Both the position numbers and the translations under genes were made by a program. This document shows, one piece after another, positions 13,106-17,008 of a stretch of 64,000 nucleotides of DNA (position 1 is its first letter; each line of letters opens with the position of its first letter). Source of the stretch: Candidatus Rifleibacteriota bacterium (GTDB taxonomy: Bacteria > Muiribacteriota > Ozemobacteria > Ozemobacterales > Ozemobacteraceae). A model generated the notes under the pieces. The model did no database searches, was not told where the DNA came from, and saw only the letters and a list, made by a program, of their open reading frames with translations. The stretch lies in NCBI GenBank assembly GCA_012517355.1, contig JAAYVD010000154.1, positions 62,001-126,000 of the forward strand, in the 5' to 3' direction.

Positions 13106-14980
13106 ATGAAACGTCTTGCCGATGTCCTGCTCAGCCCCGCCCCTGGAGCCGAGATCGTCATGGGAAACACCGCCCTGGTGAGGGCCATGATCGAGGCCGG
13201 AGTCCGGGTCGTCACCAGCTATCCGGGGTCCCCCACCCCCGAAATCGCCGACGCCATCCGCGCCCTGCCCGCCGCACGCTGTCCCTTCCACTTCGAGTTC
13301 TCCACCAACGAGAAGGTGGCCACCGAGGTCGCCTTCGGGGCCTCCGTCAACGGCCACCTCGCCTGCGTCTTCTTCAAGAGCGTCGGCCTGAACGTCGCCG
13401 CCGACACCTTCGTCCAGCTCGGACTGATGAACCTGATCGGCGGGCTGGTCGTGGTCCTGGGCGACGACCCCGGCGCCAACTCCTCCCAGAACGAACAGGA
13501 CAACCGGCACCTCGCCCGGCTGGCCTGCCTCCCCGTTTTCGAGCCCGCCTCGCCGACGGAGGCCTTCACCATGTTCAAGACGGCGGCCGCCCTGGCCCGA
13601 TCCGAGCGCACCGCCGTGGTGCTCCGCCTGACCACCCATGTCTGCCATGCCAAGGAAAAGGTGGCTTTCGGAGCCTGGGAAACCCCCGCCTTCGACGACA
13701 CCCCCCGCTTCTCTCCCGAGAACGGGCCCTACATCCCCATCACCTCCCTGGTCTTCCCCATGAAGCGGCAGGCGCTCGAACGCCTGCAACGGATCGCCGC
13801 GAGTCCAGACCACCAAACCTGGACAACCTTGTCCAGTCATGGCAACAAGCGCCGGGGGATCATCACCGCCGGCCTTCCCTACCTCTCGCTCCTGGAAGTC
13901 TTTCATGAGGCCCGGGAGTGGCCGGACATCCTGAAACTCGGGATGGTCCATCCCCTCCCGCGGTCCCCGATCCTCGATTTCCTGCGGTCCCACGAGGAAG
14001 TGAAGGTCCTGGAGGAACTGGACGACTTTCTGGAACTCCAGATCAAGGCCGTCGCCTTCGAACACCGGCTGCCGGTCCGGATCATCGGGAAGACCTGTTT
14101 CGACGACTGGGTGGGGGAATACACCCCCGACCAGACGGCGCGGGTGCTGGCGCGCGCCTGGCCCGACCTGCTGCCCCCCCTGCCCCCCCCGCCGGCCGTG
14201 ACCGTGCCGGCCCGCCCCGCCCAGTTGTGCCCGGGGTGCGGCCACCGCTCGGCCTTCCAGGCCATCAAGGCGGCCCTTCCCCCCGCGGCCATCACCGTGG
14301 CCGACATCGGTTGTCACACCCTCGGGTTCCTGCCCCCCTACGGAATCGGGCAGGTCCTGCTCTGCATGGGGCATTCCTGCGGCACTGCGGCCGGCCTGAG
14401 CCTTTTCCAGAAAGACCGGCCGGTGGTGGCCTTCCTGGGGGACTCCACCTTCTTCCATGCGGGGCTCCCGGGTATCATCAACGCGTTGTACAACCACCAC
14501 GACTTCACCCTCATCGTCATGGAAAACGGCACCACGGCCATGACCGGCCACCAGGACCACCCGGGCAGCGGGCGCAACTTCCGGGAACCGGTGGACGCCA
14601 TCCCCATCCGGCGCGTCCTCGAGGGGCTCGGGGTGAAGACCATCCTGGAAACCGACACCTATCAGCAGGCCAGGTTGACCGACCTGGTCCGCCAGGCCCT
14701 GGCCACCCCCGGATTCAAGGTGGTCATCGCCCGGCATCCCTGCATGCTGAAGTTCACCCGCGAACAGGCGCGGCAGGGCAAGCCGCGGCTGCCGGCCGTA
14801 CACCTGTCCGACGCCTGTGACCAGCAGAAGGTCTGCATCTCCGGGTTCGCCTGCCCGACCTTCCAGTTCACCCCCGAGGGGCGGGTCACCGTCCAGCAGG
14901 ATCTGTGCATCGGCGACGGGTCCTGCCGGCAGGTCTGCCCGCGGCAGGCCATCCAGCCCACGAAAAAGGGAGGAGCCTGA
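13106..14980 (+). CDS. iorA: Indolepyruvate:ferredoxin oxidoreductase, alpha subunit
   Basis: IOR oxidatively decarboxylates aryl pyruvates from aromatic amino acids to aryl-acetyl-CoA, reducing ferredoxin. The 624-aa protein has the N-terminal pyrimidine domain (GNTALVRAMIEAG, VTSYPGSPTPE), a central domain, and the TPP-binding domain with GDSTFFHAGLPG and MENGTTAMTG at about residues 450-480. The C-terminal ferredoxin-like domain is unusual. The first site reads CDQQKVCISGFACP (Gln at the second Cys position) and the second reads CIGDGSCRQVCP (Asp at that position), so each site keeps only three cysteines. A GGAGG site lies 6 nt before ATG 13106. iorB follows after 2 nt. Confidence 0.94.
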   Translation: MKRLADVLLSPAPGAEIVMGNTALVRAMIEAGVRVVTSYPGSPTPEIADAIRALPAARCPFHFEFSTNEKVATEVAFGASVNGHLACVFFKSVGLNVAADTFVQLGLMNLIGGLVVVLGDDPGANSSQNEQDNRHLARLACLPVFEPASPTEAFTMFKTAAALARSERTAVVLRLTTHVCHAKEKVAFGAWETPAFDDTPRFSPENGPYIPITSLVFPMKRQALERLQRIAASPDHQTWTTLSSHGNKRRGIITAGLPYLSLLEVFHEAREWPDILKLGMVHPLPRSPILDFLRSHEEVKVLEELDDFLELQIKAVAFEHRLPVRIIGKTCFDDWVGEYTPDQTARVLARAWPDLLPPLPPPPAVTVPARPAQLCPGCGHRSAFQAIKAALPPAAITVADIGCHTLGFLPPYGIGQVLLCMGHSCGTAAGLSLFQKDRPVVAFLGDSTFFHAGLPGIINALYNHHDFTLIVMENGTTAMTGHQDHPGSGRNFREPVDAIPIRRVLEGLGVKTILETDTYQQARLTDLVRQALATPGFKVVIARHPCMLKFTREQARQGKPRLPAVHLSDACDQQKVCISGFACPTFQFTPEGRVTVQQDLCIGDGSCRQVCPRQAIQPTKKGGA

Positions 14981-14982
14981 CC

Positions 14983-15564
14983 ATGCCCAGCGCCACCTTC
15001 GACATCTTCATGATCGGCGTCGGCGGCCAGGGGATCGGCCTGCTCAGCGAGGCCCTGCTCCGCGCCTTCGACCATGCCGGCACCCCCGTGCGGGGGGTCG
15101 ACACCCACGGTCTCGCCCAGCGGGGCGGCACCGTCACCTCGCACCTGCGGGTCGGCCCCGACACCTACTCCCCCCTGGTTCGCGAGGGACATGCCGACCT
15201 GGTCATCGCCCTCGAACGGCATGAAGCGATGCGGGGCCTGCAGACCCACCTGCGGGCGGGCGGGCAGCTGGTCTACTACGACGCCGAGTGGCAGCCCCTG
15301 CCGGTGCGCCTGCAGAAACAGCCCCGCCTCACCCCCGAAGAGCTTGCCGCCGAGGCGGAGCGACGAAAGGCCCGCCTCCACCGGGTGTTCGTCGATACCC
15401 TGCCCGACCCCCGGATGCAGAACGTGGCGGTGATGGCCTGGCTGGTCCGGAACCGGGTGCTGCCCGGCCTGGAGCCCAACCACCTCGAAAGCGCCCTCCG
15501 GGACCTGCTGGACGGCCCCGTTCTGACCAGGAACCTGGAGCTGTTCGCCACCCTGCTGCGCTGA
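14983..15564 (+). CDS. iorB: Indolepyruvate:ferredoxin oxidoreductase, beta subunit
   Basis: This is the second IOR subunit, 193 aa, of the pyruvate-ferredoxin oxidoreductase gamma-domain fold. It begins with IFMIGVGGQGIG, the GxGGQG loop that marks this family, and contains VDTHGLAQRGGTVTSHLR, the segment that contacts CoA and substrate in homologues. The start ATG 14983 is 2 nt after the iorA stop, with GGGAGGAG just upstream, so the subunits are translationally coupled. Possible terminator hairpins follow at 15591-15651. Confidence 0.93.
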   Translation: MPSATFDIFMIGVGGQGIGLLSEALLRAFDHAGTPVRGVDTHGLAQRGGTVTSHLRVGPDTYSPLVREGHADLVIALERHEAMRGLQTHLRAGGQLVYYDAEWQPLPVRLQKQPRLTPEELAAEAERRKARLHRVFVDTLPDPRMQNVAVMAWLVRNRVLPGLEPNHLESALRDLLDGPVLTRNLELFATLLR

Positions 15565-15667: not shown

Positions 15668-17008
15668 CTATTTGCGGAGCTTGGGGAAGTGCTTCTTGCA
15701 GAACTCCCCGAGGATGGCTGCCATGTCGGGCTCGCCGATCTCCTGCAGCTCGTAGCGGACGCGCAGGTGGGGCTTCTTGATCTTGATGACCCGGGTCAGG
15801 TCGATCGGGGTGGCCGACACCACGAGGTCGCAGGGGACGGCGTTGAGGGTCTTTTCGAGGTCGGCCATCTGCTTCTTGCCATAGCCCATCGCGGGGATGA
15901 TGTCGCCGATGTTGGGATACTTCTGGAGGGTTTCGAGCATGGTGCCCACGAAATACCCCTTGGGGTCGACGATCTCCCCCGCCCCGTAGCGGTTGGCGGC
16001 GACCACGCCGGCGCCGTAGGTCATCTCGCCGTGGGTCAGGGTGGGGCCGTCTTCGACCACCACGACGCGCTTGCCGCGAATCTTGCTGCCGCCGTCGACG
16101 AAGATGGGGCTGGCGGCTTCGACGATCTGGGCGCGGGGGTTCATGCGCATGACGTTCTCCCGCACGGTGTGCAGGTCGTCGGGGTAGCAGGAATCGATCT
16201 TGTTGATGACGATGACGTCGGCGGCGTAGATGTTCGCCTCGCCGGGATGGTAGGTGCACTCGTGGTTCGGCCGGTGCGGATCGGCGACCACGATCTTCAG
16301 ATCGCTCTGGAAGAACGGCAGGTCGTTGTTGCCGCCGTCCCAGACGATGACGTCGGCTTCCTTCTCGGCCTCCCGGCCGATGACCTGGTAGTCGACGCCC
16401 GAGTAGATGACGGCGCCCATATCGATGTGGGGCTCGTATTCCTCGCGCTCTTCGATGGTGCACTCGTGCTTGTCGAGATCCTTGTAGGCGGCGAACCGCT
16501 GGCAGATCTGCTTCTCGAGGTCGCCGTAGGGCATCGGGTGGCGGATCGAGACCACCTTCAGACCCAGGCTCTTGAGCTGTTTGACCACCCGGCGGGTCGT
16601 CTGCGACTTGCCGGACCCGGTCCGGACGGCGCAAACGGACACGACCGGAACCTTGGCCTTGATCGCGGTCGGCTGGTATCCCAGCATTTTGAAAGCGGCC
16701 CCGGCGGCCACGACCCGGGAGGCATGGTGCATGACATACTCGTGCGGCACGTCGCTGTAGCTGAAAACCACCTCTTCGACCTTGTGCTTCTTGATCAGGT
16801 CGAGCAGGTCGGATTCGGCGAAGATGGGAATGCCCTTGGGGTACATCTTCCCGGCCAGCTTGCCAGGATACTTGCGCCCGGCGATGTCGGGAATCTGGGT
16901 GGCAGTGAAAGCCAGAACCTCGTATTGGGGGTTGTCGCGATAGACCAGGTTGAAATTGTGGAAGTCGCGACCGGCCGCTCCCATGATGATGGTTTTGATC
17001 GGTGACAT
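15668..17008 (-). CDS. P-loop GTPase-like protein, COG2403 / cyclic 2,3-diphosphoglycerate synthetase-like
   Basis: The 446-aa protein has an N-terminal Rossmann-like part (IIMGAAGRDFHNFN, residues 7-20) and a central P-loop, VRTGSGKSQTTRR, at about 129-141. Further nucleotide-binding features are VIVWDGGNNDLPFF and VIVINKID, the last resembling an NKxD guanine motif. A late YGAG...DPKGYFVGT region is characteristic of this family. Members resemble archaeal cyclic 2,3-diphosphoglycerate synthetase, but the bacterial substrate is not established, so I keep the family name only. It follows an FmdB-type zinc ribbon gene by 68 nt on the same strand, presumably in one operon. Confidence 0.85.
   Translation of the reverse strand: MSPIKTIIMGAAGRDFHNFNLVYRDNPQYEVLAFTATQIPDIAGRKYPGKLAGKMYPKGIPIFAESDLLDLIKKHKVEEVVFSYSDVPHEYVMHHASRVVAAGAAFKMLGYQPTAIKAKVPVVSVCAVRTGSGKSQTTRRVVKQLKSLGLKVVSIRHPMPYGDLEKQICQRFAAYKDLDKHECTIEEREEYEPHIDMGAVIYSGVDYQVIGREAEKEADVIVWDGGNNDLPFFQSDLKIVVADPHRPNHECTYHPGEANIYAADVIVINKIDSCYPDDLHTVRENVMRMNPRAQIVEAASPIFVDGGSKIRGKRVVVVEDGPTLTHGEMTYGAGVVAANRYGAGEIVDPKGYFVGTMLETLQKYPNIGDIIPAMGYGKKQMADLEKTLNAVPCDLVVSATPIDLTRVIKIKKPHLRVRYELQEIGEPDMAAILGEFCKKHFPKLRK

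What the first reader, a model, noticed from the sequence alone, without database searches (positions are those of the whole stretch)
14809..14960. Each ferredoxin-like cluster site of IorA lacks its second cysteine
The two C-terminal cluster motifs read C-x2-Q-x2-C-x5-CP and C-x2-D-x2-C-x3-CP. Asp in the second position resembles ferredoxins such as the one from Pyrococcus furiosus, where Asp ligates a 4Fe-4S cluster of altered potential and can give way to 3Fe-4S. If real, electron transfer by this IOR would differ from that of the archaeal enzymes.
Basis: partly seen in the sequence, partly recalled or inferred. Interest (0 to 1): 0.52.

Follow-up and report, generated by a model that had tools for sequence, protein, structure and literature searches.

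The report
IorA-like enzyme with altered iron-sulfur sites
A widespread family of bacterial enzymes that resemble indolepyruvate oxidoreductase consistently lacks one metal-binding cysteine at each of its two outer iron-sulfur sites, which probably changes how it passes electrons on.

Summary
The C-terminal ferredoxin domain of IorA (window 13106-14980, +) reads CDQQKVCISGFACP and CIGDGSCRQVCP: the second cysteine is missing at both sites. It is not an error or a local oddity. All 79 subfamily proteins compared (56-83% identical to the window) keep the six remaining domain cysteines and an Asp at site 2, and never have Cys at the site-1 slot. The Gln is incidental: that slot is Ile 30, Ala 10, Val 7, Gln 1 and others. 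The pattern marks a distinct IorA-like subfamily: it scores below the NCBIfam IorA cut-off, changes core positions that 67 of 67 other IorA share (Arg178, Tyr404), and sits beside a conventional IorA in the same genome. Site 2 is closer to Sulfolobus zinc ferredoxin (CIADGSC) than to Pyrococcus ferredoxin (CIGDAIC); in the former the Asp is not a ligand and the cluster is [3Fe-4S]. Best reading: an oxoacid oxidoreductase alpha subunit with a complete proximal [4Fe-4S] cluster and two three-cysteine outer sites, probably [3Fe-4S]. Cluster type, potential and substrate are inferred, not shown.

The parts
13106..14980 (+). iorA-like gene, 624 aa (POR_N, TPP_enzyme_C, C-terminal ferredoxin domain)
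14983..15564 (+). iorB-like gene, 193 aa (POR gamma-type domain), directly downstream
   Evidence: IorB relative directly downstream in 73 of 80 relatives, contig too short in 4, absent in 3
14816..14857 (+). Ferredoxin motif 1: C571-x2-Q574-x2-C577-x5-C583-P; the second-cysteine slot is never Cys in the subfamily
14906..14941 (+). Ferredoxin motif 2: C601-I-G-D604-G-S606-C607-x3-C611-P; Asp and Ser invariant in 79 of 79
14228..14239 (+). Proximal-cluster cysteines C375 and C378 (CPGC)
   Evidence: Cys in 79 of 79 subfamily, 4 of 4 split-group and 67 of 67 other proteins; assigned by homology to the OFOR beta domain
14312..14317 (+). Proximal-cluster cysteine C403 followed by subfamily-diagnostic His404 (Tyr in 67 of 67 other IorA)
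14741..14743 (+). Proximal-cluster cysteine C546
13637..13639 (+). Subfamily-diagnostic His178 (Arg in 67 of 67 other IorA)
13229..13231 (+). Subfamily-diagnostic Ser42 in YPGSP, where other IorA have YPGTP and OFORs have the YPITP Thr that binds the substrate carboxylate
   Evidence: role of the OFOR Thr from PMC5020499 passages; correspondence of the two motifs is my inference

Best explanation
The gene pair encodes a two-subunit 2-oxoacid:acceptor oxidoreductase of a distinct IorA-like subfamily. Shown: TPP domains, a complete proximal four-cysteine set, and a C-terminal dicluster ferredoxin domain with three cysteines per site (site A: C571, C577, C611; site B: C583, C601, C607, with D604 at the vacant slot; the assignment follows dicluster ferredoxin topology). 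Inferred: site A holds a [3Fe-4S] cluster, because its slot is usually a non-ligating residue. Electrons would go from oxoacid-TPP to the proximal [4Fe-4S] to the outer sites, which sit at higher potential than in an all-cysteine domain. That would favour the oxidative direction and an acceptor of higher potential than clostridial-type ferredoxin. The divergent active-site positions make a substrate other than indolepyruvate plausible.
For: Motifs in 79 of 79 proteins, 57 clusters at 80% identity. Slot 574 is Ile, Ala, Val, Leu, Met or Phe in 56 of 79. Asp604-x-Ser606 79 of 79, matching 1xer CIADGSC, where Asp48 is unbound, H-bonded to Ser50, and cluster I is [3Fe-4S] held by Cys45, Cys51, Cys93 at -280 mV, selectively reduced by its OFOR (PMC2946596 passages). 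Split-gene relatives: Asn at that slot with the Ser kept (CNGNGSC), 4 of 4. CXX?XXC ferredoxins that were examined are [3Fe-4S] whatever the residue (PMC6237146 abstract and passages). Proximal cysteines intact. Model of the window protein matches PFOR/OFOR structures (VIA Z up to 31.6). Below the NCBIfam IorA cut-off in the window and in 5 of 5 relatives scanned (531-579 versus 650.9 bits). A conventional IorA in the same genome, and an over-cut-off IorA in 24 of 39 genomes of relatives.
Against: No spectroscopy or structure for this subfamily was seen in anything I read. In P. furiosus ferredoxin the same Asp position does ligate a [4Fe-4S] cluster without oxygen (PMC6237146 and PMC2946596 passages), and the named hosts are, to my knowledge, anaerobes, where a fourth iron may stay in. 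Of the 79 site-1 slots, 23 carry residues that could in principle ligate (N, S, T, H, R, Q). Residue 575 is His or Tyr in 66 of 79 and could ligate instead. No conserved neighbour gene names the substrate or the electron acceptor.
Confidence: 0.5

Rival explanations
1. 7-iron version: site A is [3Fe-4S], but Asp604 truly ligates a [4Fe-4S] cluster at site B as in P. furiosus ferredoxin, giving a site of altered potential that can lose its fourth iron.
For: Asp604 invariant in 79 of 79; the same CIGD start as P. furiosus CIGDAIC; Asp is a ligand there, with -160 mV (3Fe) and -375 mV (4Fe) (PMC6237146 passages).
Against: The residue two after the Asp is Ser in 79 of 79, as in the Sulfolobus ferredoxin where the Asp is unbound, and not Ile as in P. 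furiosus. The split-gene relatives have Asn, not Asp.
Confidence: 0.27
2. Both sites hold ordinary [4Fe-4S] clusters in the cell with water, hydroxide or a small molecule as fourth ligand; the cysteine losses are tolerated and change little.
For: The second-cysteine position is lost repeatedly in the wider family: His/Asp at site 1 in L123-L135, Asp at site 2 in the Paracoccus fused enzyme, Asn in the split group.
Against: Invariant Asp and Ser at site 2 and complete absence of Cys at the site-1 slot in 79 of 79 point to selection, not drift.
Confidence: 0.15
3. Site A has lost its cluster and only the proximal and site-B clusters remain.
For: Motif 1 has only three cysteines and a slot without a conserved ligand.
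Against: C571, C577 and C611 are kept in 79 of 79 proteins, which an empty site would not require.
Confidence: 0.05

Closest known systems
Indolepyruvate:ferredoxin oxidoreductase alpha subunit (IorA, NCBIfam TIGR03336)
   Same: Domain order, full-length match (16-616 of the protein to 3-595 of the profile), IorB partner, proximal cysteine set
   Different: 531 bits against a cut-off of 650.9; 34% identical to the conventional IorA of the same genome; His178, His404, Ser92, Ser42 and Gly379 where other IorA mostly have Arg, Tyr, His, Thr and Pro; both outer sites lack the second Cys
Sulfolobus tokodaii zinc-containing 7Fe ferredoxin (1xer), cluster I
   Same: CIxDGSC motif with the Asp-x-Ser pair; works with a 2-oxoacid:ferredoxin oxidoreductase (PMC2946596 and PMC5020499 passages)
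   Different: Separate protein; the Asp motif is the first, not the second; the other site has all four Cys; its zinc site was not looked for here
Pyrococcus furiosus ferredoxin (1siz)
   Same: CIGDxxC with Asp at the second-cysteine position
   Different: CIGDAIC lacks the Ser; single-cluster protein
CXX?XXC ferredoxins of Mycobacterium marinum (PMC6237146)
   Same: Non-Cys residues of many kinds at the second slot
   Different: Small single-cluster P450 partners, not an oxidoreductase domain
Fused indolepyruvate oxidoreductase of Paracoccus sp. SMMA_5 (L119)
   Same: Asp-x-Ser at the site-2 slot: CNKDFSCLNGFCP
   Different: Single 1142-aa chain; site 1 complete (CEGCGDCSVESNC)
Conventional-scoring IorA L123-L135, from genomes that also carry the variant
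   Same: Site-1 slot not Cys: His in 12, Asp in 1 of 13
   Different: Site 2 complete; over the NCBIfam cut-off; Arg178 and Tyr404 kept

Membership tests
IorA (TIGR03336 equivalog) | Score over the curated cut-off of 650.9 bits | tested here: not met
   531.1 bits; 5 of 5 relatives scanned 534.8-579.1 bits
IorA (TIGR03336 equivalog) | TPP-dependent POR_N and TPP_enzyme_C domains | tested here: met
   Pfam
IorA (TIGR03336 equivalog) | IorB-type partner encoded alongside | tested here: met
   but this IorB scores below its NCBIfam cut-offs too
IorA (TIGR03336 equivalog) | Two complete four-cysteine cluster motifs in the C-terminal domain | tested here: not met
   Note that 13 of 13 over-cut-off proteins L123-L135 also fail this at site 1, so it is not a strict feature
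IorA (TIGR03336 equivalog) | Oxidises indolepyruvate or other arylpyruvates | not testable with these tools
   needs enzyme assay
2-oxoacid:ferredoxin oxidoreductase superfamily | Fold and proximal-cluster cysteines | tested here: met
   AlphaFold model pLDDT 84.2, matches to POR, OOR, OGOR and PFOR with Z about 27-32; C375, C378, C403, C546 invariant
P. furiosus-type Asp-ligated cluster | C-x2-D-x2-C motif | tested here: met
P. furiosus-type Asp-ligated cluster | Asp coordinates the fourth iron | not testable with these tools
   needs a structure or spectroscopy; the Asp-x-Ser context argues against
Sulfolobus-type [3Fe-4S] site | CIxDGSC with Asp-x-Ser | tested here: met
Sulfolobus-type [3Fe-4S] site | Resident [3Fe-4S] cluster | not testable with these tools
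   needs EPR or Mossbauer

The most novel reading that the evidence does not exclude
An oxidoreductase subfamily spread over several bacterial phyla has turned its built-in two-cluster ferredoxin domain into a pair of [3Fe-4S] sites (10 Fe per alpha-beta unit instead of 12). It would be a higher-potential electron exit that makes oxoacid oxidation one-way and feeds an acceptor other than low-potential ferredoxin, with an active site retuned for a substrate that is not an arylpyruvate.
Probability: 0.3. Interest if true: 0.65.

Novelty: new variant of a known kind. Interest (0 to 1): 0.45.

Why it matters
Oxidoreductases of this superfamily set where low-potential electrons go in anaerobes, and by resemblance this gene would be called indolepyruvate:ferredoxin oxidoreductase. 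If its outer clusters are [3Fe-4S], it may not simply reduce ferredoxin, and its substrate may differ as well, so metabolic reconstructions of sulfate reducers, Riflebacteria, Pelosinus and others that rely on that name would be wrong at this step. It also offers natural variants (Cys, His, Asp, Asn or a non-ligand at one position) for testing how one ligand sets cluster type and potential inside one fold.

Tried and rejected
Sequencing error: rejected, because the motif recurs in 79 of 79 proteins. Conserved Gln as a ligand: rejected, Q in 1 of 79. A compensating new cysteine: none found. Besides the proximal and domain cysteines, the only columns with Cys in more than 30% of the subfamily are C180 (78 of 79) and C420 (66 of 79), and both also hold Cys in some other IorA. 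Gene neighbourhood as a clue to substrate: nothing beyond iorB recurs; the next commonest neighbour families are in 6 of the 74 loci where that script found iorA, 6 of 80 loci being missed. Viral contigs: no match. Plasmids: 106 records matched, all under 60% identity. A single origin of the site-1 loss in this clade and in L123-L135: the tree with those 41 rows as one clade is rejected (p-AU 2.7e-46), but that group was chosen after the first tree was seen. The place of the split-gene group is unsettled: sister to the clade (support 80), inside it, so whether site 1 or site 2 changed first is unknown. One search held a long-branch row (L119f), left out with L019 and L038. The first alignment took the wrong strand for L119f; corrected. 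Foldseek's own top rows were other TPP enzymes (AHAS, benzoylformate decarboxylase); PFOR/OFOR chains came to the top only in the VIA-align second look, whose spans scarcely test the C-terminal domain. A first count of iorB neighbours gave 46 of 80 because the criterion missed overlapping frames; corrected to 73 of 80.

Rows dropped before the count of 79: six duplicates of rows already in (L039, L044, L047, L062, L063, L117), L097 (frame broken, though its tail reads the motif), L100 (contig ends before the domain) and L022 (N-terminal piece). Only the best 80 of 193 relatives found were available.

Papers: only passages were seen (some from abstracts) of PMC6237146, PMC13111528, PMC5109826, PMC6401487, PMC5897657, PMC5020499 and PMC2946596. 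No paper describing this subfamily's cluster motifs turned up in ten searches of the held open-access library; papers outside that library, such as those on purified archaeal IOR, were not searched.

Full report
Observation. The ORF at 13106-14980 (+) encodes a 624-aa IorA-like protein, followed after two bases by an IorB-like gene at 14983-15564. Pfam finds POR_N, TPP_enzyme_C and one Fer4. NCBIfam TIGR03336 (IorA) matches full length but at 531 bits, under its cut-off of 650.9.

Where it comes from. The window lies in a 7.1-Mb genome. The nearest named relative is Candidatus Ozemobacter sibiricus (83% identity), so the host is probably a Riflebacteria-type bacterium. That genome also holds a conventional IorA (677 bits, over the cut-off) with CVKCGQCWKVGCP and CVHCGVCASVCRP, 34% identical to the window protein.

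Is it a clade? A search of one genome for each of 84,980 species gave 193 relatives, of which the best 80 were kept; the titles include Desulfobacteraceae and other Desulfobacterota, Riflebacteria, Pelosinus and Sporomusaceae, Acetomicrobium, Halanaerobiales, Spirochaetes, a Thermotogaceae and a Caldiserica. With the relatives, and after removal of duplicates and broken rows, 79 proteins could be compared over the domain. C571, C577, C583, C601, C607, C611, D604 and S606 are kept in 79 of 79; position 574 is never Cys. At 80% identity these fall into 57 clusters, 57 of 57 with Asp604 and Ser606. Within the window's own family, 8 of 24 genomes carry the variant, counted at 58% identity or more; two further genomes (G002, G009) have short pieces of 44 and 50% identity that I did not place; none of the 15 other genomes of the phylum passes that mark (my count). 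In the window's own genome the Asp motif occurs once, against 77 all-cysteine motifs.

What else distinguishes the clade. Compared with 67 other IorA proteins, the 79 members and the 4 split-gene relatives have His178 (Arg in 67 of 67), His404 next to the proximal ligand C403 (Tyr in 67 of 67) and Ser92 (His in 51 of 67); Ser42 is found in 78 of 79 and 4 of 4 (Thr in 66 of 67). Ser42 sits in YPGSP, which I equate with the OFOR YPITP motif whose Thr binds the substrate carboxylate (PMC5020499 passages; the correspondence is my inference). So core positions and electron exit diverged together, and the name indolepyruvate oxidoreductase is not secure. The proximal cysteines 375, 378, 403 and 546 are Cys in all 150 proteins (79 + 4 + 67).

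The wider family. The second-cysteine position is labile at both sites. Thirteen over-cut-off IorA (L123-L135) have His (12) or Asp (1) at the site-1 slot with site 2 complete. A fused Paracoccus enzyme has site 1 complete and Asp at site 2 (CNKDFSC). Four genomes encode the ferredoxin domain as a separate small gene between iorA and iorB, with site 1 complete and Asn at site 2 (CNGNGSC). Trees of the core without the ferredoxin domain, with 28 of the 79 clade rows, put the clade and the split group together with support 100 (32 rows; 33 rows with the long-branch fused row). The branching inside that set is unsettled. Making the clade and L123-L135 one clade is rejected (p-AU 2.7e-46), which fits two separate losses at site 1 but does not order them, and the group was named after the first tree was seen.

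Which cluster? In dicluster ferredoxins two cysteines of one motif (three in a full set) pair with the last cysteine of the other; the S. tokodaii ferredoxin binds cluster I by Cys45, Cys51 and Cys93 (PMC2946596 passages). So site A here is C571, C577, C611 and site B is C583, C601, C607. Site B matches S. tokodaii ferredoxin 1xer, LCIADGSC against LCIGDGSC, more closely than P. furiosus CIGDAIC. In 1xer the Asp is not bound and hydrogen-bonds Ser50; [quoted passage not shown] The clade keeps both Asp and Ser in 79 of 79, and the split group keeps the Ser while the Asp is Asn. That favours a capped, non-ligating Asp. Ferredoxins with other residues at this slot were [3Fe-4S] in every case those authors examined (PMC6237146 abstract), which bears on site A. 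The review says that two [3Fe-4S] clusters are very unusual in such ferredoxins. Against this, P. furiosus shows that Asp can ligate a fourth iron without oxygen.

How it would work. Oxoacid bound to TPP gives electrons to the proximal [4Fe-4S], then to the outer sites. With one or two [3Fe-4S] sites the exit potential would be higher than in an all-cysteine domain, favouring oxidation and a higher-potential acceptor. These steps are inferred. The model (mean pLDDT 84.2; 72-84 in ten-residue blocks over residues 571-620) aligns with POR, OOR and PFOR structures at Z about 27-32, mostly over its first 12-360 residues, so it supports the superfamily but does not test the cluster sites.

Function in the cell. 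Only iorB recurs beside the gene (73 of 80, contig too short in 4, absent in 3). Desulfococcus multivorans makes an IorA3B3 specifically on phenylpyruvate (PMC5109826 passages), but whether that pair belongs to this clade was not tested.

Verdict. A real and conserved variant of a known enzyme kind that I did not find described in ten searches of the held open-access library.

Noticed in passing
   Followed up: partly
L123-L135: IorA proteins over the NCBIfam cut-off, in genomes that also carry the variant, have His (12 of 13) or Asp (1 of 13) instead of the second Cys at site 1.
   Followed up: partly
L016, L120, L121, L122: The ferredoxin domain is a separate small gene between iorA and iorB, with Asn at the site-2 slot.
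   Followed up: partly
L158-L162, L170, L171: A further IorA group has a shifted motif 1 of the form C-x4-C-x-C-x3-C-x5-CP.
   Followed up: no
L163-L169: IorA-like ORFs without a C-terminal ferredoxin domain in genomes that also carry the variant; several were matched across an in-frame stop.
   Followed up: no
window 15668-17008 (-): 446-aa protein with only a weak CobW/HypB/UreG-type nucleotide-binding match (23.8 bits) and no NCBIfam family at E 1e-20, next to iorB and also beside it in the nearest relative L010.
   Followed up: partly
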